A stretch of DNA of 12,500 nucleotides from Nephromyces sp. MM_2019 (Eukaryota; Apicomplexa; Aconoidasida; Nephromycida). The notes beneath the pieces are model-generated. The model ran no database searches. It was given only the letters and a program-made list of their open reading frames with translations, and was not told the origin of the DNA. The stretch covers positions 6,614 to 19,113 of the forward strand of contig JADHZB010001234.1 in the NCBI GenBank assembly GCA_015657535.1, in the 5' to 3' direction. The position numbers and the translations under genes are program-made. Positions 1 to 12,167 of this stretch are shown here, piece after piece; the stretch's first letter is position 1; each line of letters opens with the position of its first letter.

Positions 1-47
<47 letters not shown>
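1..47. repeat. (TG)n dinucleotide microsatellite
   Basis: An uninterrupted TG run of about 23 units forms the left edge, so its true length is unknown. It passes directly into the 14-nt array that follows, which suggests the array grew from a TG tract by gaining an interrupting AT-rich segment. Confidence 0.97.
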
Positions 48-50
<3 letters not shown>

Positions 51-310
51 TCTATGTGTGTAATTCTATGTGTGTAATTCTATGTGTGTAATTATATGTG
101 TGTAACTCTATGTGTGTAATTCTATGTGTGTAATTCTATGTGTGTAATTCTATGTGTGTAACTCTATGTGTGTAACTCTATGTGTGTAACTCTATGTGTG
201 TGCAATTCTATGTGTGTAGCTGCTTTATGTGTGTAACTCTATGTGTGTAACTCTATGTGTGTGTAACTCTATGTGTGTGTAACTCTATGTGTGTAACTCT
301 ATGTGTTGTA
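47..310. repeat. 14-nt TG-rich tandem array (TAATTCTATGTGTG type)
   Basis: Units start every 14 nt (47, 61, 75 and so on), with variants TAACTCTA and TAATTATA. Two-base TG insertions and one larger interruption near 208-232 break the phase on the right side. There are about 18 copies. The array lies upstream of the first exon of the split gene, so it may be intronic or intergenic. Confidence 0.93.
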
Positions 311-388: not shown

Positions 389-431
389 ATTATATATGTA
401 CCATTAATCAATGTAACATTTCAATATATAT
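389..431 (+). CDS. Candidate additional upstream exon of the split gene
   Basis: After an acceptor-like GTGTGTAG (AG at 387-388) there is a short non-repetitive stretch, open in the frame starting at 391, that reads YICTINQCNISIY. A GTGATA donor at 432 would leave the two bases AT. The next exon begins with G, so the junction would make ATG in the correct frame. The evidence is phase compatibility and local loss of repetitiveness only. Other frames are also open over so short a distance, so this is tentative. Confidence 0.3.
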
Positions 432-502: not shown

Positions 503-2315
503 GATACGATATTTTTATAGTGTTCAATGGTATAGAATGTGTGTGAATATTTATAGTATAATATTTACACACACATAAAATTTGAAAATTGTGTGTATAT
601 TTTAATAGGCTTGAAAACTGTTTATCATGTATTGTGCGATGTTACACACTCAATTATCCATTATTAATAGGGGACACTCGTGAAATTGATATAGGCCCAC
701 TTGATAGTAAGTAAACCTATATATACCACACACACACACACACACACACGCATATAATACACACCATCAAAACATACACAAATACACATACAATACACAC
801 AATCACATACACACAAATTCTCATACAATATACACAGTTAGACATATATATAAACTCACACATAGACAAATACACACACACACACACACTTAGGTATACA
901 CATAAATTCATTTCCACTTACACACAAATACATTTTGTCTAATATATTTATAATGTGTGTGTGTGTGTGTTTGAATATTTTGTTTACAGCATTAATAGCA
1001 AACCAGGCACAACTCTTGGATAAAGTTGAACTCCAGTTTGTTAATCTATATAGTTTCTGATACTGACAGATATATATACACACACATAAATATAAATATC
1101 AATACACACACACACACATACACACACATACACATACACACACACATAAATACAATACACACACACACACACACATAAATACAATACACACACACACACA
1201 CACACAAATACAATACAGATACACACACACACACACATACACACACACACACACATATACGCATACACACACACACATACAATACACACACACACACACA
1301 CATACACATACACACACACACATACGCATACACACACACACACATACGCATACACACACACACGCACACACATACACACACAACACACACACACAAATAC
1401 AATACAGATGCACATACAAACACCTACAATATATACAAACACATATATAATAAATATATACTTACATACGAACAACATTTTTCAACACATCTAGACCCAT
1501 TTACACACCTTTAATAACCTATATATATATATGTATTTATGTATATTTGTGTCTGTGTGTATGTGTGTGTGTGTGTAATTTATAATAGGCTAGATAACAA
1601 ATTTGTTAAACGTTTTGCTAAGCCTATTTACAAGCCACTCACTACTTTCAAATTTCATAACAAAACTGCACACAACACCACACACACAACTCCTTCTACT
1701 AAACCCAACTCTCTACCCTTTAAAATTATTTCATCTGCCAATTTTCAAGTTTGTAAATACACACACACATTTAGATATATACATACACACATATACACAC
1801 ACATTTAGATATATACATACACACATATACACACACATTTAGATATATACATACACACATATACACACACATTTTATATACACACACATATAGATATATA
1901 CACACACATATAGATATATATATACACATAGATATATATATACACCCATATATAGATATATACACACACATAGATATATATATACACCCACATATAGATA
2001 TATACACACACACTTAGATATATATATACACACACACTTAGATATATATATACACCCACATATAGATATATACACACACACTTAGATATATATATACACC
2101 CACATATAGATATATACATACACACATATAGATATATACACACACACTTAGATATATATATACACCCACATATAGATATATACACACACACTTAGATATA
2201 TTCAAAGGTTTTCATCCACCATTTAAATTTATTAATAAAAATGCGTTGAGAGTTGATCTATTAATTTGCACATTCTACATCATTGTCTTGTATATATAAA
2301 TGTGTATATACATAA

Positions 2316-2359
<44 letters not shown>

Positions 2360-3284
2360 AGATTCAAGAAGTATTTTATGATGAAGATTATTTTAAAGTA
2401 AATAATGATAATAAATTAGGCCCTGACACCCCCCCATCTTTATTATTACCTCAAAATTATGAACGGGCACTAAATAAACAAGATCAATTGGTTATATATA
2501 TATATACACACACACACATTTTTACACATTCACACACACACATACATATACACACACACACATTTTTACACATTCACACACACACATACATATACACACA
2601 CACACATTTTTACACATTCACACACATACATATACACACACACACATTTTTACACATTCACACACATACATATACAACACATACACATTCACACACACAC
2701 ATACATACACACATACAACACATACACATATACATACACACACATACATACACACATATATAAATATATAACAATTTTTCAATTTTATTGTTTAGATTAT
2801 TTCACTGCTTGAAAAACATAAAGAAATGAAATTAAGTGAACCTCAAAATCAATTATATTTCAAAATCTTAACATTTAAATTATGGTGTGTATAATTTATT
2901 TACACACATATAATTACACACACACACCAGGGTTATATTTACTCATAATACCTACACACAGTACATATATATATAAATCTACACACACATTTTTACACAC
3001 AAACTATGTGTGTAAAATTCTCAGGAAATATATACAAAAACAAAAACGTGAAGTAATGTTAATGGCTGTCTCAAATTTAGATAATATAAATGTGAGTTTA
3101 TATACATTTTTATCACACACAAATATACACATACACACATATATATGTATAAATCTATTTGCAAATACACACACACACAATACACATGTGCATATTTACA
3201 CCCAATTAGGTTAAAACCAAAGATAAACCTATGAACGATACTTATAAAGAAACACTACTTGAGTCAAAATTACCGATTTTTTGA
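503..3284 (+). CDS. Multi-exon protein-coding gene, unrecognised product (5' partial)
   Basis: Proposed exons: 503-538, 609-706, 990-1035, 1589-1752, 2196-2284, 2362-2490, 2796-2884, 3025-3091 and 3210-3284, ending at TGA 3282-3284. The reading frame runs across all eight junctions and gives 263 residues after the first split codon. Split codons read M, T, Q, Y and W. Donors include GTGTGT, GTAAGT, GTTTGT, GTAAAT and GTGAGT; all acceptors are AG, mostly TAG. The donor at 2285 (GTCTTG) is weak; 2252 (GTTGAT) is an equally in-phase alternative. The product is of mixed, globular-looking composition: an N-terminal part with WYRM, LENCLSCIVRCY and GDTREIDIGPLD, a Thr/His patch near residues 83-95, a hydrophobic stretch LLICTFYII at 136-144, and a charged, probably helical C-terminal third (about 184-239). 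I recognise no family. No start codon is supported, so the gene probably extends left. The exon pattern is clear; single boundaries are less certain. Confidence 0.75.
539..608 (+). other. Intron with a perfect TACACACA/TGTGTGTA stem
   Basis: This is a 70-nt GT-AG intron (GTGTGTGA ... TTAATAG), phase 2. TACACACA at 566-573 can pair perfectly with TGTGTGTA at 590-597 across a 16-nt loop, so the pre-mRNA could fold into a hairpin in the middle of the intron. Confidence 0.65.
707..989 (+). repeat. CA-then-TG microsatellite intron
   Basis: A 283-nt intron begins with GTAAGT and ends TTTACAG, phase 1. It holds CA tracts (about 727-750 and 872-889), CA-rich degenerate sequence between them, and then a (TG)n tract at about 954-971 just before the acceptor. 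CA and TG arms in one transcript are complementary. Minus-strand reading frames here are only CA-repeat translations. Confidence 0.7.
1036..1588 (+). repeat. Large CA-rich microsatellite intron with a terminal TG tract
   Basis: A 553-nt interval lies between exons that join in phase (CA plus G gives CAG). Most of 1080-1420 is CA repeat with TA and AA interruptions. A short non-repetitive part (about 1465-1530) shows no clear exon. A TG tract at about 1549-1577 precedes the ATAATAG acceptor. Long Cys/Val minus-strand reading frames here reflect the repeat alone. Confidence 0.65.
1753..2195 (+). repeat. TA/CA minisatellite intron with repeated acceptor-like units
   Basis: A 443-nt intron begins GTAAAT and ends CACACTTAG, phase 1. 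On the left are 34-nt units (TTAGAT at 1771, 1805 and 1839). On the right are roughly 22-nt units alternating TATAGATATATA and CACACACTTAGATATA. CTTAGATATA occurs at 2013, 2037, 2081, 2147 and 2191, and the last copy is the proposed acceptor. The array therefore runs right up to the exon. Confidence 0.7.
2285..2361 (+). other. Short intron ending in (TA)n(TG)n-TAG
   Basis: The 3' side is well defined: a TA run, then about ten TG units, then TAG and a clearly coding exon. The 5' side is uncertain, because a phase-0 donor is needed and only GTCTTG (2285) or GTTGAT (2252) fits. A UG tract directly before the acceptor resembles the UG tract before human CFTR exon 9, which is known to influence splicing through TDP-43. 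Confidence 0.55.
2491..2795 (+). repeat. CA-rich intron with a 44-nt minisatellite
   Basis: A 305-nt phase-0 intron runs from GTTATA to TTGTTTAG. It contains a tandem unit of CA repeat plus ATTTTTACACATTC. Units begin at 2518, 2562, 2606 and 2646, so the period is 44, 44 and then 40 nt. Degenerate CA/TA sequence follows to about 2765. The plus-strand Thr/His frame through it is repeat, not coding. Confidence 0.75.
2885..3024 (+). other. CA-rich intron
   Basis: A 140-nt phase-2 intron starts GTGTGTATAA and ends AAATTCTCAG. The split codon TG+G makes Trp. It contains scattered CACACA blocks, with one TGTGTGTA at 3006-3013 near the acceptor. AG sites near 2930 and 2960 could bound a micro-exon, but none is needed to keep the frame. 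Confidence 0.65.
3092..3209 (+). other. CA-rich intron with canonical GTGAGT donor
   Basis: A 118-nt phase-0 intron starts at GTGAGT and ends CCCAATTAG. Its interior is CA/TA-rich. It separates the exon ending ...NLDNIN from the terminal exon, which ends ...LPIF and TGA. Confidence 0.75.
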
Positions 3285-3360
3285 CATTTACACACACACA
3301 CAATATTTATGCACATAAAATTTATACACACCAAATCTATACACACAAACTAGATTTACA
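3285..3360. other. 3' flank of the split gene
   Basis: AT-rich sequence with CA blocks after the stop codon, passing into the 15-nt array. No distinct polyadenylation signal can be picked out in this composition. Confidence 0.4.
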
Positions 3361-3968
3361 CCTACACACATAATACCTACACACACAATACCTACATACA
3401 CAACACCTACACACACAATACCACACAATACCTACACACACAACACCTACACACACAATACCACACAATATCTACACATACAATACCACACAATATCTAC
3501 ACACACAACACCTACACACACAATATCTACACATACAATATCTACACACACAATATCTACACACACAATACCTACACACACAATACCTACACACACAATA
3601 TCTACACACACAATGCCTACACACACAATACCACACAATATCTACACATACAATACCACACAATATCTACACACATAATATCTACACACATAGTATCTAC
3701 ACACGTAATATCTACATACACAATATCTACACACGTAATATCTACACACACAATATCTACACACACAATATCTATACACACAATACCTACACACATAGTA
3801 TCTACACACGTAATATCTACATACACAATACCTACTCACGTAATATCTACACACACAATATCTACACACACAATATCTACACACACAATATCTACACACA
3901 TAGTATCTACACACATAATATCTACACACACAATACCTACACACATAACATCTACACACATAATATTA
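3361..3968. repeat. 15-nt CA-rich tandem array (CAATATCTACACACA type)
   Basis: About 40 units of 15 nt vary among CAATATCTACACACA, CAATACCTACACACA, TAATATCTACACACA and TAGTATCTACACACA. Interspersed shorter units (CAATACCACA) give higher-order blocks on the left. Because 15 is a multiple of 3, all frames of the complement give pentapeptide repeats such as CRYCV or VDIVC. These are artefacts of the period. Confidence 0.95.
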
Positions 3969-3977
3969 ATACACACA

Positions 3978-4342
3978 GACTAACGATATATAAACTATTT
4001 AAACAACCAAAACATCACTTTTAACTCATTACTTACACACCTCTAAAATTTTGTACACAGACTAGCAACACAAATACACACACACCTTATATATATATAT
4101 ACTTGAAACATATAATTTTTATAACTTCTTTTACACATTTACACACAATCATACATGTAAACTGAGATATATTACAGGCACACACACTCTGGTATATATA
4201 AAGGAACAGATAGATACACAGTATCACAATTATAAATATATATATATATATAATCTTACACACACACACACATTGACACACACGTACTTACATAAAGGCA
4301 CACATTTGTTGAAATTTTGCACACGTACTTGACAAACATACA
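3978..4342. other. Mixed segment with weak exon-like islands, strand undecided
   Basis: Non-repetitive islands interrupt the CA tracts. On the minus strand, about 4107-4190 between a TATACCAG acceptor and a GTATAT donor reads CNISQFTCMIVCKC and then VKEVIKIICF. About 4293-4328 lies between TCAAG and GTAAGT. About 4040-4067 lies between a TAG and GTAAGT. On the plus strand, 3979-4021 after ACACAG reads LTIYKLFKQPKHHF and a stop. The islands are short and several frames are open, so I do not build a gene from them. Confidence 0.2.
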
Positions 4343-4490
4343 CACACATGTTAACACACACCAACACATTCACACACACAAATACAAATACATACACTGA
4401 CATGCACACACACACAGTGACACACACACAATGACATACACACACACAATGACACACACACACACAGTGACACACACACGTACTAAATAT
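4343..4490. repeat. CA-repeat block with GTGA/ATGA interruptions
   Basis: CA dinucleotide runs are broken at irregular spacing by AGTGACA and AATGACA. The minus-strand CVCVCH frame across it is a repeat translation. Confidence 0.85.
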
Positions 4491-4640
4491 TTGAGAAAAT
4501 GTTAATACTTTTTTAGATTTTTATTTTGTAACTTGACTATACTAAACAAATTACACACATTTTTTTAGTAACATGTATGTAGTGTGAAAAAATGTGTAAA
4601 ATAAAAAATTGTTAATAAATAAACAAAAGTTGTGTGTAGT
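4491..4640. other. AT-rich junction between CA-rich and TG-rich blocks
   Basis: About 150 nt lack dinucleotide tracts and are rich in T and A runs. To the left the plus strand carries CA; to the right it carries TG. I see no exon with support here. Confidence 0.6.
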
Positions 4641-4982
4641 TATATATATATATCTGTGTGTGTGGATATAAATATTAGTGTATATATATATTAGTGTGTG
4701 TGTATAATATGTATTAGGGTGTGTGTATAATATGTATTAGGGTGTGTGTATAATATGTATTAGGGTACGTGTATAATATGTATTAGGGTGTGTGTATTAA
4801 TGAGTGTATATAAATATATATATTTGAGTGTGCGTGTGTGTAAATCTTTGAGTGTGCATAAATATTGATATGTGCATAAATATTAGTGTGTATGTTGATA
4901 TATATAATCAAGTGAGTGTGCTTATAGCTATAAAGTGTGTACTTATATAATTATTAGTAGGTGCTTATATATATATTAATGT
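4641..4982. repeat. TG/TA-rich block with a 23-nt tandem array
   Basis: At about 4692-4798 four to five units of 23 nt carry GTGTGTGTATAATATGTATTAG. GGG occurs at 4717, 4740, 4763 and 4786, exactly 23 nt apart. The rest is degenerate TGTGTATATAAATATTAG sequence. No gene is visible. Confidence 0.88.
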
Positions 4983-5186
4983 GTGTATAAACAGATATTA
5001 GTAAATGTGTATAAAGATTTTTTAGTTAAGGGTGTAGAGAAATTGATGTGTACATGTGTGTATTTAAATAAATGTGTAGAGGTATATAGATTATTAATTG
5101 TATCGATTATAATCAAAATAGCTAATACTTTTATTGTACTAGAAAATATGTATTACTACACACACTATTTGGTGCAAAGTATATAA
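4983..5186 (+). CDS. 67-codon ORF of uncertain reality
   Basis: This ATG-to-TAA frame covers the least repetitive part of the region and reads KGVEKLMC, NKCVEVYRLLIVSIIIKIAN and LENMYYYTHYLVQSI. It could be a terminal exon after the TTTTTTAG near 5022, or simply chance. The minus strand is also open (TIKVLAILIIIDT ... TKKSLYTF), so strand cannot be decided. There is a hydrophobic middle and no family resemblance. No neighbouring exon was found to extend it. Confidence 0.25.
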   Translation: MYKQILVNVYKDFLVKGVEKLMCTCVYLNKCVEVYRLLIVSIIIKIANTFIVLENMYYYTHYLVQSI

Positions 5187-5990
5187 CTTTTCTAATGTGT
5201 GTAAATATAATTATATATTTTTATATTGACAGTATGTATATGTGTGTATATATAATATATATGTTTGTATACATAATATATATATGTGTGTGTATATATC
5301 ATATAAATATTTTGTATATATGTGCATGTGTAATCTGTATGAGTATTGATACATAATAGTATCATTCAATGAGAAATTGTTTTATAATTTGAATAGATAT
5401 AACAAATGTGTATAATAATTGTAAAGTCTACAAACTTAATAAATAAACTAAACAATATATATATATGTGTGTGTGTGTCTGTGTACTATTATTGATTTTT
5501 AATTATTGAGAAAATATTAAAAAAGATATAAACAATTTTTGAGAATTTTCACATTTCAAAAATAAGGATTTTTTGACATAATTTTCTTAGTATAGTTTTA
5601 TTTACTTATTCACACACATGTATATATATATATATATATATATACATAAATAATTCAATGTGTGCACTCACACACATAAATTATTTAATACATACACAAA
5701 CATTCATAAATTGTTAGATACTCACATACACACACATAAAGGTGTTAATTTGAACATTATTTATATAGTATATTTTAAAATCAAATTAAGTATATATAAG
5801 CATACATTATAAATGATATGTGTATGATTTAATTCATATACATATATATATATGTGTGTGTGTGATATAAGAATTCCATAGTGGTATAACTTTATTAATT
5901 TTGGAAATTTTACAAAATTTCAACACACAAATTTGAATAATATTAATATAGTTAATTTATACACATAAACTGTATTAAATAAATACACAC
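5187..5990. other. AT-rich intergenic DNA without a visible gene
   Basis: Composition is very AT-rich, with (TA)n runs near 5620-5644 and short TG tracts near 5466-5478 and 5852-5864. CACACA blocks appear at 5610-5735. The plus strand changes from mostly TG to mostly CA between about 5340 and 5610. No exon-like stretch with consistent splice sites was found on either strand. Confidence 0.6.
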
Positions 5991-6650
5991 ACACACCCAT
6001 ACTTGATACACATATTTATAAATATCAAATTTTTAAGTAAATAAGTTTAATTTGACAATAAATATTAATTCTGTATTATACACATTGTAATACAATCAAA
6101 CACACACACATATATATAAATATACTAGCACACACACAATGAAAATAAATTTAACTAATATAAATTACAATCAAAATTAAACTTGTAGTTAATTCGTTAA
6201 AATGAACACACACACATCATAGTAGTATGTAAACAGACAAATATAGTATAGGTACATATATATATATATATATATATAATTTACACAGTTTAAATTTTAT
6301 ATTATAGTCACACACAGTTTACTTAGACAAATTAACTTGTACATACTTTAATTGAAGAAAATTCATCTAAACACATTTACTAAGACAAGATTTACATAAA
6401 TATATAAAATTTACTTGAAATACACACATAACTTATACACATAAAATTCACATACACACCTAATATATCACACACAATTTATACACATAAAAATCACATA
6501 TACACACAATTTATACACATAATTTAAATATAAATAAATTACCTACAATAACCTACACATTAACATGTAGCCTTGTATACACATTATTGTCAACTTGTAA
6601 ATACAAGCACATATGTATGTGGATTAAAACAGCCAATACACACACACACA
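5991..6650. other. AT/CA-rich intergenic DNA without a visible gene
   Basis: Short CACACA blocks are spaced in AT-rich sequence, with a (TA)n run at about 6258-6278. Small islands such as 6563-6640 are non-repetitive but give no convincing frame. Confidence 0.55.
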
Positions 6651-6652
6651 CA

Positions 6653-6728
6653 CACCAACTAGGTAGCTAACATATTTACCCACCAACTAGTTAGTTAGCA
6701 CACACACACACACCAACTAGTTGCTATA
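6653..6728. repeat. Three CACCAACTAG repeats linked by CA tracts
   Basis: CACCAACTAG occurs at 6653, 6681 and 6711, followed by GTAGCTA, TTAGTTAG and TTGCTAT. CTAGTTAG forms a near-palindromic core. The units are separated by CA tracts. Function is unknown. Confidence 0.7.
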
Positions 6729-7035
6729 TACACAGACAAACTACGCATCACATTTTGCCAACAAATAAACTACACACACCTAAATAAATAATTTACAGAC
6801 AATTCAAAACACATTCAACATATCCATACTAAAAACATATATACCCCCCACACATACATAACAAAATTATTTTACACACGCACTACTCACATATCATACA
6901 CACTACACATGCACTACAAATACACAACTACTTAATTTACACACAAAACTAGTGCTCAGTTCAAGTGTTGTGAATAATATATACTTTTGTGTCGTGTGTG
7001 TAGTATATTTTTTGAAAATTATATATCTAACTCAA
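6729..7035. other. AT/CA-rich DNA, no gene seen
   Basis: Degenerate CACACA and ACTACACA sequence occurs with many stops in all frames. One short TG interruption lies at about 6990-7002. Confidence 0.5.
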
Positions 7036-7072
7036 CACCCACCCACCCACCCACCCACACACACACACACAC
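7036..7072. repeat. (CCCA)n tract passing into (CA)n
   Basis: About five CCCA units run directly into about nine CA units. The opposite strand is (TGGG)n, with runs of three G and so some capacity for a G-quadruplex. Confidence 0.85.
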
Positions 7073-7196
7073 AAACTCATAATATTTATGTTGAATTTAC
7101 TCTAGTATAGATTCAATAAATTTGAAAATTTTATTATGTTTTCAAAAGTGTATATTATATATCACAATTGAAATTCAATTTCAAAACATACGCACA

Positions 7197-7243
7197 CAAT
7201 TAACAACACATACAATTAACAACACATACAATTAACAACACAT
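7197..7243. repeat. Three copies of a 16-nt repeat
   Basis: CAATTAACAACACATA begins at 7197, 7213 and 7229. It is another unit length built around an ACA-rich core. Confidence 0.9.
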
Positions 7244-7735
7244 GTATGCACTCACACACATAATTAGTTCATACACATACCCATGATTAGTAGATACACA
7301 TACACATATACACACACACCTATAAATTAACAACTTGCATATACAAAAACGTGTCACACATACACAAACATATACAAAATTAACAGTACAAACAAATAAC
7401 ACGAACAACACACACATATAGATACACAAATAAACAAAAAATATATATACAAAAATATTATATATGGCACACACAAAAACAATAATAATACACATACGAA
7501 ACAAATGAATTTGAAACACACACACACTAACAACTTACACACACTAGGCTGATATCTATACATAAAATTAGCACTCACACACAATCTACACACTACATTT
7601 TTCCCTACACAATACTGACCCTCACACTAACCCTTGTGAAAAAATATATATAATTTAATTATCCTATTAACCATAGGCACATCCCAATTAATTACTACAC
7701 ATTACTACACACATATACACACACCTAAATTACAC
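7244..7735. other. CA-rich AT-rich DNA, no gene seen
   Basis: Degenerate ACACAC and TATACA sequence gives Cys/Val/Ile-rich minus-strand frames of up to 97 codons. These follow from the base composition and lack varied codon content. Positions 7595-7700 are less repetitive but show no supported exon. Confidence 0.5.
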
Positions 7736-7950
7736 AAACACACACACACACACATATGCTCATTATAAACCCATACACTCACTATATATACCCACACACA
7801 TACATTCACTGTATGCACACTCACAAAGACAAATACATATAAACTTATTACACACACACACACACGCACACACACACGCACACACACACACACAAACACA
7901 CACACACATACACACATACACATCCACACACACACACACACACACACACA
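7736..7950. repeat. CA microsatellite block
   Basis: Long CA runs, densest at 7851-7950, with occasional GCA and TACA interruptions. Confidence 0.93.
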
Positions 7951-8086
7951 TAACCCCTCCTCTTATTTATATATACCCCCCCTGCCTCCTTTATATATAT
8001 ATATAACTCCTCCCTCCCCCTACCCCCTTTATATATATATATAACACCTCCCTCCCCCTACCCCCCTCACCTTATATATATATACA
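7951..8086. repeat. Pyrimidine/TATA minisatellite, 38-nt unit
   Basis: Units of CCTTT plus (TA)n plus a C-rich tail (CTCCCTCCCCCTACCCC) are spaced 38 nt apart (CCTTT at 7988 and 8026), with diverged copies on either side. The plus strand is almost pure pyrimidine between the TA runs. The array ends the CA-rich domain and begins the C-rich leader of the next gene. Confidence 0.85.
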
Positions 8087-8763
8087 AATGCCTATACATA
8101 GAAAAAAAATTATAAAATTAATTGTTAATCACATCCTCAATAATTATAACTTCTACTTTCTACAAAAATTATGATCAAAATATACACAAGAATAATCACT
8201 CATATAATCAAATTATCCACTTTTTGAACGTCTCTTCCTCACTAAATACACTTCTTCATCTGGAAGTTATCTTTCCAATTTGATTTAAAAATTTTAAGCA
8301 GATTTATCATTTATAATTAACATATAAACTCCTACTTAACTTCTCTTTATAACCGCCTCAAGGCGACAATTTCCCTTAGATCATTTTATATAGAGTTAAT
8401 ATATTTCCTCCTCTTCCTTATCTCACAAATTTTGACAGCTGTGCCCTCCAACGATACACCCTCCTAGTGTACCCTGATCTGTCTTCCTTATACCTCTAAT
8501 AATATTTTAACCCTCCGCATACTCAATATACATCACACAGGCCCAAATCATTTGTTATATTCATCCTCTTTAAACAACGCCTACGCCACTCCTAAACTCA
8601 ATACCTCCAGGACGGCTGCCACCACACCAAGACACACCTTCCTTATGTGGATATAGGCATCCTCTGACTTCTTCCTCCTCCAACTAACTCAAACGTTGAA
8701 TTTTAATAATACTTTTACTATATATATAAATCTTCCCCTCCTTATTACAAACTTTTAAGAAGG
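8087..8763 (+). promoter_or_regulatory. Pyrimidine-rich upstream and probable leader region
   Basis: About 680 nt lack CA/TG tracts and are C+T rich (TCCTCCTC, CTTCCTC, CCCTCC), clearly different from everything to the left. It most likely contains the promoter and 5' untranslated region of the gene at 8764. A small inverted repeat, GCCTCAAGGC, lies near 8355. A run of TA at about 8718-8730 sits some 35-45 nt before the ATG. In-frame TAA codons at 8704-8709 close the reading frame upstream. No exon is evident. Confidence 0.45.
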
Positions 8764-11700
8764 ATGGGTAAATCATCAACCCAAGTCATGAGCTCTCCTC
8801 CTTCGAATGCAAACCTCAGCCCCCGCCAGGCTGCCCTCTTTGACAATGCATCCCATATATTAGATATGTATAATTACACACCTGCTGACGTCTTGTCTCT
8901 TCTCAACACATGCAATTTTAACGAGGAAGAAGTGGCGGTCAAGGTGTCCAATATAGTGGAGATTAATTGTGGGCATGAACAGGGAGAGTGGCAGTTAGCG
9001 GGCGCCCGCAAAACCAAGCCACAACATCAAGACAACACACACTCACAGGCCGCTACACCAGAAACTCAGAATACCTCCGCGGACAAGCGGAAGCCCAAGA
9101 AGAAGGAATGGGACAACACGCACAAAAATAACAACAACACCAATAATTCACGCAGGCCCAATAAGGGTAACAACAATTCAAGAAACAATAAATTTGTTAA
9201 CAAAGATGTGCAAATGGTCAGTAATGAACACACACAAAAGGAGCAATCAGCACCTGTCGAACAGCCCAATAAGACACCACCAACTGTACCTACCAAACCT
9301 TCTACTCCCCCTCAAGACACACAACAAGATGACACACAAGAGAATACTCAACTTCCTAAGAATTTCACACGTGCAAGAGCACAAAATTCATTGTATAGAA
9401 AAAATCAAAAGGCACAATCACATACACCTGAAACAAACAAGACAGCTCAAGTACACACAAATGAAAGGACACAATCTTTCCAAAAACGTGATGAAATAAA
9501 TGAAAAGAGAACACACCTTGTAGATAAAGAAGGTGATAACAAATCTCACACACAGAAAAATAATAGGAGATATAAACAAACCAAAATGAGTTACACATCT
9601 TATAATCCCGAGGCGATATCTGAGAAGTTACACACAGAGAAAACCAATACAAATATCTACGTGAAGACAACCAATGACCCACCTCTACCCAGTGTATATG
9701 ATGCAAATAACAAGGTTGAAAATGTTACACATCAACCTGCACAAACTTGGGCTAATTTTAGGGCTAATTTGGTACGTTCAAAAGATGTTGAAGAACCCAC
9801 AAAATCTACACACACTAATGATAAAGAAGATATAACGAATACTACACAAGATACATACACACCCACAGATATCACATCTAATGATAGTGTGCTACAGCCA
9901 ACTGCTAGGGTTACAACAACATCTGAGGAAGCTACAAGCAATACAGAGGAGAATACAAGTAAGACGTTAACACAAGTTACACACACAAGAGAAACAATTA
10001 CTCCATCTACCACAACAACACAAAAAAGTGAATCTACACACACTTTTAAACAATTAGATACATCATCCATATTAACAACAGCAACAACAACAACAACTAC
10101 CAACACACCTATTAAAGAGGGATCAAGTTATTCATCTACACACATCACATCTTCAACACGTGTAAGTACACACACAACACCAAACCCTATCAAAGAATTT
10201 GATGAACCTGTTATTATGCCCAAATTAGGCCATGAAATGAATAAGACAGGTTTAATATTTGGTAATATAAATATAAGTAACACACAAGTTGAAGTGAGTA
10301 AGCCTATATCAAGTCAAGGTGTTGTTATTAACACACAACCTCCAACACAATATACACAACCAAGTATGATGACACAACCTACACATACACAAACAAGTAT
10401 GATGAAACAACCTACACACACACAAACAACTATGAGTACATTACCTATACAACCCAATAACACTATATCTACACAAACAAACACTGTACCTACACAACAT
10501 TTACACACACAAACAACTCGAAATTATCCATTTTCAAATACTACACCCCCAATGGATAAAACTGAACCTGTACACTCATATGAACCTAAAGAGGGTGGGG
10601 GTTTAAAAACACTAACAAATGCATTTGATCGTGACACACTTATTCAACAAACGACATATAATCCTACTACACAATATAATAATCCACCCCCATTATTAGT
10701 ATCACCTTCTACACACACACAACAACCTAATAATATGTATGTACACTCACAAGATGCAAGTTCACAAACACACAATGAAAATAAATCATTTGAACAACCT
10801 AATACAAAGAAGGATACACCTCTTCGAAATTCACCTATAACAACTATACACACACCCCCAACATATACACATGATATAATGAATCAACAACATAATAGAT
10901 ATACACACACATCTGTACAAACACATAATTATCAACAATCAAATTATCCTATTGATACTACTAGTATAGATTATCATGATACAAATAATATGAGTAATAA
11001 TTATATGTCAAATACACCACAACCACCACCTCCACACATTTCAAATACAATTGGACATTCATCACCTCCAACACAACAACTTACACACACACACACACAA
11101 CCACAAAATAATACACATTTTAATAATAATATAACCTATCCATCTGGACCTCCTGGTTTAACACCTACACCTGGTACACATTATAATTATAATTTTCCAG
11201 GTGTAGCTTATTCATATAATAATATACCTTATAATCAATATCAAGCTATGCAATTACATTATGGTCATATGGGTGGGCCTTATAATAATAAAGGTGGGCC
11301 TGGTTTACACACACCTTATCCTAATCAATTTAATATTAATTATGATAATTTTGATGATAGTTATTACACATCTAATGATCTTACACACACAACAACAACA
11401 CCTACAACCACTACAACACAATATCAAAGTATGCCTAATAGTTATGATCAACAACAATTATCTATAAATAACAATACACACACACAAAATAATACACACA
11501 CAAATAGTACACACACACAAAATACACAAACATCTGCATTATCTGGATTTAATAATCATGATACACGTTCATTTAATAACAACACATTTACACGTAATAA
11601 TGGTGGTAATGTGTATAACAAAAATAATCAAAATAACACACAAAATAATAAGAATAATTTATCTTACTTTTCTCCACACACATATCGACATACACACACA

Positions 11701-12167
11701 CCTAATAATACTAATGAATTATTTATTACACCCCCACCCCCTCCACCTAATCCACCTTCAAATGATAATAATAATACTAATAGTAATACTAGTACTAATA
11801 ATAATAATAATAATACACACACAAGTACAGGTGTATCTACACCTGTACAACCACACCTAGTTGATAATCGTAACACATTTAATACACACACAAATTTTGC
11901 CTCTAATTCAAATCCATTTATAACAACACCAGGAGGTTTACACACACAACTACAACAACCACACACAAATAATACAAATAACACACAACAACATACACAC
12001 TCACAACAACATACACACTCACAACAACATACACACTCACAACAACATACACACACACAACCCACCAATAATAACAATAATACACACACTGGTAATACAA
12101 ATAACTCAAATCGTTCAAATAACTCAAAGCCTAATAATTACTCACTCTATGGAAACTATTCAAACAC
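8764..12167 (+). CDS. UBAP2L/Lingerer/GIP1-like UBA-domain protein, first exon (3' partial)
   Basis: The first ATG after in-frame stops at 8704-8709 lies in good context (A at -3, G at +4). The frame stays open for 1134 codons plus 2 nt to a GTATGT donor at 12168. Residues about 20-68 look like a UBA-like three-helix domain (LFDNASHILDMYNYTPADVL ... CNFNEEEVAVKVSNIV), followed by GEWQLAGARKTK at 74-84. In UBAP2L and plant GIP1-type proteins the UBA is likewise followed by a Trp and a basic stretch. Residues 483-504 (VIMP ... TGLIFGNINI) resemble the second conserved motif of those families. WANFRANLV near 329-337 is another ordered-looking island. Residues about 792-876 are Tyr/Gly/Pro/Asn-rich. 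The rest is Thr/Asn/Gln/His/Pro-rich, with many THT and HTHTQ runs from CA tracts, and probably disordered. Known relatives act in RNA granules, RNA binding or RNA polymerase II turnover; a similar role is inferred. Early codons end often in G/C, later ones nearly always in A/T. Yeast Def1 (CUE plus Q-rich) is an alternative comparison. Confidence 0.85.
10354..10452 (+). repeat. 33-nt coding repeat (TQxSMMxQPTH)
   Basis: Three 11-codon units lie inside the large ORF: TQPSMMTQPTH, TQTSMMKQPTH and a diverged TQTTMSTLPIQ. The period is a multiple of 3, so the frame is kept. Confidence 0.8.
11983..12054 (+). repeat. 18-nt coding repeat (SQQHTH)
   Basis: Four tandem 18-nt units encode TQQHTH once and then SQQHTH three times, near the end of the first exon. 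Low divergence suggests recent expansion. Confidence 0.95.

What the first reader, a model, noticed from the sequence alone, without database searches (positions are those of the whole stretch)
503..3284. Hidden nine-exon gene whose introns are almost entirely CA/TG microsatellite
Short non-repetitive islands between CA/TG tracts are flanked by GT and AG sites. When joined, they keep one frame across eight junctions (phases 2, 1, 2, 1, 0, 0, 2, 0) and end at a stop. This is very unlikely by chance, yet no single reading frame reveals it. The protein is not one I recognise.
Basis: seen in the sequence. Interest (0 to 1): 0.75.

Follow-up and report, generated by a model that had tools for sequence, protein, structure and literature searches.

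The report
Repeat-riddled gene for unknown protein
A real but ordinary intron-split gene is hidden among CA/TG repeats in a eukaryote's DNA; its protein matched nothing that was searched, and a well-known growth-control gene in the same assembly is split by the same kind of repeats.

Summary
The islands join across eight GT-AG junctions with exactly the reported phases and end at TGA 3284. None of 2000 dinucleotide shuffles of the islands gave an open nine-island chain. A coding model from an unrelated gene of the same assembly (TOR kinase) scores the region 41.1 against at most 19.6 in 400 shuffles and prefers the proposed frame in 8 of 9 exons. Seven of nine acceptors rank among the best 8 of 69 AGs.

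Corrections: the gene starts upstream of 503; exon 5 is weak; perfect CA/TG runs are 36% of intron sequence, not nearly all; the reported phases give 259 residues, not 263.

The architecture is not special to this gene: TOR exons in the same assembly, joined across CA/TG-rich introns, match mTOR at E 6e-21. The protein matched nothing in Pfam, PDB or a 5.8-billion-protein set. Most likely this is a real, fast-evolving or lineage-specific gene whose introns gathered dinucleotide repeats. A preference for (TG)n just before acceptors (8 of 14 introns) did not extend to other genes.

The parts
503..538 (+). exon 1 of the visible part (begins inside a codon; not the first exon of the gene)
   Evidence: acceptor 502 ranks 1 of 69 AGs
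609..706 (+). exon 2
   Evidence: acceptor rank 5 of 69, donor rank 5 of 91
990..1035 (+). exon 3 (alternative end 1052)
   Evidence: acceptor rank 2 of 69, donor rank 20 of 91; alternative donor rank 80
1589..1752 (+). exon 4 (alternative start 1594; end 1748 if exon 5 is absent)
   Evidence: best of its three frames, but negative against the non-coding background; acceptor rank 4 of 69, donor rank 49 of 91
2362..2490 (+). exon 6
   Evidence: highest codon score of the nine; acceptor rank 3 of 69
2796..2884 (+). exon 7
   Evidence: acceptor rank 7 of 69, donor rank 2 of 91
3025..3091 (+). exon 8
   Evidence: acceptor rank 30 of 69, donor rank 8 of 91
3210..3284 (+). exon 9 with stop TGA 3282-3284
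   Evidence: acceptor rank 8 of 69
539..3209 (+). span of the eight introns 539-608, 707-989, 1036-1588, 1753-2207, 2252-2361 (reader: 2285-2361), 2491-2795, 2885-3024, 3092-3209
   Evidence: perfect CA/TG runs 19% to 45% per intron
389..431 (+). possible upstream exon; phase fits but not supported
   Evidence: lowers the codon score from 62.8 to 55.8

Best explanation
Window 503-3284 (+) is the 3' part of a real protein-coding gene of a eukaryote, spliced by the spliceosome. The islands are exons kept by selection on the protein. The GT-AG introns between them have filled with CA, TG and TA dinucleotide repeats, as introns of TOR on another contig of the assembly have. Removal of the repeats joins the exons into the last 230 to 260 residues of a longer protein of no recognised family (fast-evolving or lineage-specific). 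Shown: the open chain, coding-type codon use, splice-site resemblance, no second copy found in the assembly's readable sequence, and the same architecture in a homology-confirmed gene. Inferred: transcription, splicing, and growth of the repeats by replication slippage without a function of their own. Unknown: the protein's role and the 5' end, which would lie in a withheld stretch.
For: Open nine-island chain, 0 of 2000 shuffles. Codon score: proposed frame +52.2 with no internal stop, other frames -95.0 (20 stops) and -72.3 (38 stops); 8 of 9 exons best in the proposed frame. Best chain 41.1 against a maximum of 19.6 in 400 shuffles. Acceptors at ranks 1,5,2,4,35,3,7,30,8 of 69 by a matrix from 14 other introns. 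TOR exons joined across three CA/TG-rich introns match mTOR, E 6.2e-21. All 8 matches of the joined protein in its own assembly lie in this contig.
Against: No transcript data. No homologue in any search, so no test of selection between species. Exon 5 weak. Against the non-coding background exons 4 and 5 are negative (-11.3, -4.4). The best-chain search is not specific elsewhere: chains of 42.7 to 71.8 on both strands of four other loci, and 43.5 on the strand opposite a strong gene in L053; 27.3 on the reverse strand of the TOR 5' region. So its weight rests on the composition-preserving shuffles, not on the raw score. The assembly may hold more than one organism, so codon and splice models from other contigs may come from another genome.
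Confidence: 0.82

Rival explanations
1. A recently dead pseudogene: exons still look coding but the gene no longer makes protein.
For: No expression data; weak exon 5; no intact relative found.
Against: No internal stop over 232 to 259 codons in any of the four exon models tried; acceptors mostly strong; no functional parent copy found in the assembly (which cannot see withheld sequence).
Confidence: 0.09
2. Chance: in AT-rich DNA full of GT and AG, a patient reader can always find a chain.
For: GT and AG are common (91 and 69 in the region); CA and TG runs contain no stop codon in any frame; best-chain scores are high in several other loci.
Against: 0 of 2000 shuffles; 41.1 against a maximum of 19.6 in 400 shuffles; frame-specific codon scores from an independent gene.
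Confidence: 0.03
3. The repeats take part in splicing: (UG)n runs just upstream of the acceptor stand in for the polypyrimidine tract, or CA and TG tracts pair and bring the splice sites together.
For: A TG run starts within 42 nt of the acceptor in 8 of 14 introns of this gene and TOR; random placement gives 3.0 on average and reached 8 in 0 of 5000 draws; cuts of 30 and 60 nt give P 0.0024 and 0 of 5000; no such excess at the 5' end or for CA runs.
Against: The 42-nt cut was set after looking. Only 1 of 11 introns of two Hsp70-family genes has it (2 of 11 at 60 nt) and 0 of 5 predicted introns on contig C310 (1 of 5 at 60 nt). Folding of 10 introns against 12-nt block shuffles gives z from -1.94 to +0.66. 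Introns 4, 6 and 8 lack a TG run in their last 60 nt.
Confidence: 0.12

Closest known systems
Ordinary GT-AG spliceosomal introns with intronic dinucleotide microsatellites
   Same: GT-AG ends, frame kept across junctions, repeats denser in introns than in exons, as reviewed for eukaryotes in PMC9990875 (passages only)
   Different: Repeat density is extreme: 36% of this gene's intron sequence in perfect CA/TG runs
TOR kinase gene on contig C1060 of the same assembly
   Same: Short exons among CA/TG-rich introns, same splice style
   Different: A known protein family with a very long repeat-bearing exon; this gene's protein has no known family
Intronic CA repeats bound by hnRNP L in vertebrates
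   Same: CA repeats inside introns near splice sites (search listing and abstract starts only; binding recalled)
   Different: Whether this organism has such a protein, or whether CA runs act here, was not tested
Pairing of AC and GT repeats at opposite intron ends in fish (Genome Research 2016; recalled, not read)
   Same: Introns 2 and 3 carry CA tracts upstream and a TG tract near the acceptor
   Different: Introns 4, 6 and 8 have no TG tract near the acceptor and no intron folds with z below -2

Membership tests
Spliceosomal GT-AG introns | GT donor and AG acceptor at each junction with the reading frame kept | tested here: met
   8 of 8 junctions
Spliceosomal GT-AG introns | Splice sites resemble other introns of the assembly | tested here: met
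   7 of 9 acceptors in the best 8 of 69; donors mixed, ranks 9,5,20,49,89,29,2,8 of 91; exon 5 sites not met
Spliceosomal GT-AG introns | Removal seen in transcripts | not testable with these tools
   no RNA data held
Known protein family | Match to a curated family or solved structure by sequence | tested here: not met
   0 at E<=10 in Pfam and PDB
Known protein family | Homologue in a large protein set | tested here: not met
   none of 263 and of 488 scored candidates at E<=10; needs shared 5-residue words, so remote relatives can be missed
Intron bridging by paired AC and GT repeats | Introns fold more stably than block-shuffled versions | tested here: not met
   z -1.94 to +0.66 in 10 introns, 40 shuffles each; one TOR intron left out for length
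UG tract as general acceptor signal | TG run just upstream of the acceptor in introns of several genes | tested here: not met
   8 of 14 in this gene and TOR but 1 of 11 in Hsp70-family genes and 0 of 5 predicted on C310

The most novel reading that the evidence does not exclude
In part of this genome dinucleotide repeats have become the main intron material and splicing has adapted to them: UG runs kept just upstream of acceptors replace the polypyrimidine tract, CA runs fill the rest, and sense-strand CA runs spill into exons as Thr-His tracts; and this gene belongs to a protein family not yet described.
Probability: 0.12. Interest if true: 0.6.

Novelty: new member of a known kind. Interest (0 to 1): 0.33.

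Why it matters
Gene finders that mask simple repeats or look for long open frames could miss genes like this one, so protein counts for such a genome may be too low. The assembly also strains the rule that dinucleotide repeats are depleted in exons (reviewed in PMC9990875, passages): CA runs make up over 10% of the neighbouring gene's exon and of the large TOR reading frame. That makes it a natural test of how splicing and proteins tolerate repeat invasion. The protein itself is an unassigned sequence without known role.

Tried and rejected
Family search: Pfam with the joined protein and pieces, PDB by sequence, the large protein set with the piece alone and with a longer query: nothing. Rfam at gathering thresholds: nothing in the window. 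The neighbouring gene's first 100 residues were folded alone: mean pLDDT 57.6, four helices, too weak for a fold search, which I did not run.

Bridging by CA-TG pairing and a general UG tract were tested and not supported. An upstream exon at 389-431 fits the phase but lowers the codon score. Cardiosporidium cionae as the source: its published assembly is 57 Mb, 2,213 contigs, 34.4% G+C (passages of PMC7737231); this one is 48.3 Mb in 1,127 contigs; identity neither shown nor excluded. Literature: the searches (terms on introns with microsatellites, CA, AC or TG repeats, and apicomplexan, protist, alveolate or gregarine) returned 0, 1, 0 and 14 papers (10 of the 14 listed); no title or abstract start listed describes genes with CA/TG introns in such an organism. 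Searches were seen as listings only.

Full report
Place. The window is 6614-19113 of contig C636 (19,113 bases) of an unnamed 48.3 Mb assembly of 1,127 contigs. The 6,613 bases before it read N, so the gene's 5' end cannot be seen.

Observation. The nine islands join with GT donors and AG acceptors to give the reported phases 2,1,2,1,0,0,2,0 and a stop at 3284. The protein is 259 residues with these phases. The value 263 fits another exon 3/4 junction (1052/1594), which changes the phase and uses poorer sites: donor rank 80 of 91 and acceptor rank 34 of 69, against 20 and 4 for 1035/1589. Exon 1 begins right after an acceptor inside a split codon, so it is not the first exon.

Chance. Each island was dinucleotide-shuffled with introns left intact, and any AG or GT from 40 nt outside to 10 nt inside the island edges was allowed. 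The real sequence passes all nine islands; of 2,000 shuffles none does, the longest run being seven islands, once. A best-chain search with codon scores gives 41.1 for the real sequence against a mean of 9.8, sd 2.2 and maximum 19.6 in 400 shuffles. At the same settings it gives 13.5 on the reverse strand and 6.1 to 12.3 in four scans of window 3300-8700. With stiffer intron penalties only exons 6 to 8 are recovered, at 31.0 and 27.0. Against this: in four other loci (L054, L057, L060, L063) a similar search gives chains of 42.7 to 71.8 on both strands, in L053 it gives 43.5 on the strand opposite a strong gene, and on the reverse strand of the TOR 5' region 27.3. Its raw score is therefore no proof; the shuffles are what count.

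Independent coding evidence. Codon frequencies came from a TOR kinase reading frame on another contig (1,674 of 2,948 codons kept after removal of low-complexity stretches). Against TOR's own out-of-frame codons the proposed frame scores +52.2 with no internal stop; the other frames score -95.0 with 20 stops and -72.3 with 38. Eight of nine exons are best in the proposed frame; exon 5 is not. Against non-coding sequence the total is +35.7, with exons 4 and 5 negative. Ending exon 5 at 2251 raises the first total to 62.8; leaving it out, with exon 4 ending at 1748, gives 60.0.

Splice sites. A weight matrix from 14 introns (11 from two Hsp70-family genes placed by spliced alignment to one protein; 3 from TOR) was applied to all 69 AG and 91 GT of the region. 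The proposed acceptors rank 1, 5, 2, 4, 35, 3, 7, 30 and 8; the donors rank 9, 5, 20, 49, 89 (2252), 29, 2 and 8. Exon 5 again stands out as weak.

Control gene. Contig C1060 carries TOR. Its 5' exons, joined across three CA/TG-rich introns, match mTOR at E 6.2e-21, and pieces of it score above the Pfam cut-offs for mTOR_dom, FAT, FRB (partial) and PI3/PI4 kinase. CA/TG-rich sequence therefore does serve as intron in this assembly. In the two Hsp70-family genes the introns hold only a few TG or CA runs, so density differs between genes.

How repeat-rich. Perfect CA or TG runs of at least 6 nt are 36% of the 2,034 intron bases of this gene (exon 5 ending at 2251), 2.9% of its CDS and 21% of window 3285-8100. 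CA runs are also 10.8% of the neighbouring gene's first exon and 11.5% of the large TOR reading frame. Sense-strand runs there are CA rather than TG, 45 to 0 and 119 to 14, and read as Thr-His rather than Cys-Val. As CA and TG runs hold no stop codon in any frame, many ORFs are such repeats.

Function. None is assignable. No Pfam family and no PDB chain at E<=10; none of 263 and none of 488 scored candidates of the large protein set at E<=10. In its own assembly all 8 matches lie in this contig. For the organism, the only clue is an Hsp70 from another contig: of the best 120 of 5,051 hits, the named ones include alveolates (Ceratium, Amoebophrya, Perkinsus, Toxoplasma, Durusdinium, Cardiosporidium) and animals. 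An alveolate is plausible but not shown, and the assembly may be mixed.

Mechanism. Best reading: selection keeps exons and short splice sites, while intron interiors grow by replication slippage (inferred). Two working roles for the repeats were tested. Pairing of CA and TG tracts is not supported: z from -1.94 to +0.66 in 10 introns. A TG run near the acceptor is over-represented in 14 introns of this gene and TOR (8; expected 3.0; 0 of 5,000 random placements; the ends of the last three TOR introns were set by eye), but only 1 of 11 Hsp70-gene introns and none of 5 predicted introns on C310 has it within 42 nt. It may reflect no more than that CA runs, which lack U, are tolerated less there.

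Verdict. A real spliced gene of unknown family in repeat-rich DNA: right in substance, overstated in detail, and not a new kind of system.

Noticed in passing
window 8764-12167 (+): First exon of a second gene: about 1,134 codons, N-terminal part without Pfam match at E<=10 (reminiscent of CUE/UBA helices, by recall), then a long T/H/N/Q-rich tail with Thr-His tracts coded by CA runs; it appears to end at GTATGT 12168 and run into a TG-repeat intron at the contig end.
   Followed up: partly
L039 and L040 (contig C1060:1-13315): A TOR kinase gene with CA/TG introns and a reading frame of about 3,000 codons laced with Thr-His, Asn and Gln repeats.
   Followed up: yes
L022, L023, L024, L065 (contigs C344, C771, C211, C54): Two cytosolic-type Hsp70 frames of 666 residues with different G+C (0.31 and 0.42) and two BiP-like genes, one with short and one with long introns: the assembly may hold more than one organism.
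   Followed up: partly
window 41-306: Tandem array of about 18 copies of a 14-base unit TGTGTGTAACTCTA just upstream of the gene part.
   Followed up: no
window 7955-8065: C-rich tandem units (CCTCCCTCCCCCTACCCCC with TATATA) about 700 bases before the start of the second gene; could form G-quadruplexes on the other strand.
   Followed up: no
L054 (contig C20:1-4000, minus strand): A predicted chain reads like a membrane pyrophosphatase (recognised by eye, no search run).
   Followed up: no
window 539-3209 and C1060 introns: TG runs cluster just upstream of acceptors while CA runs do not; not seen in other genes; unexplained.
   Followed up: partly
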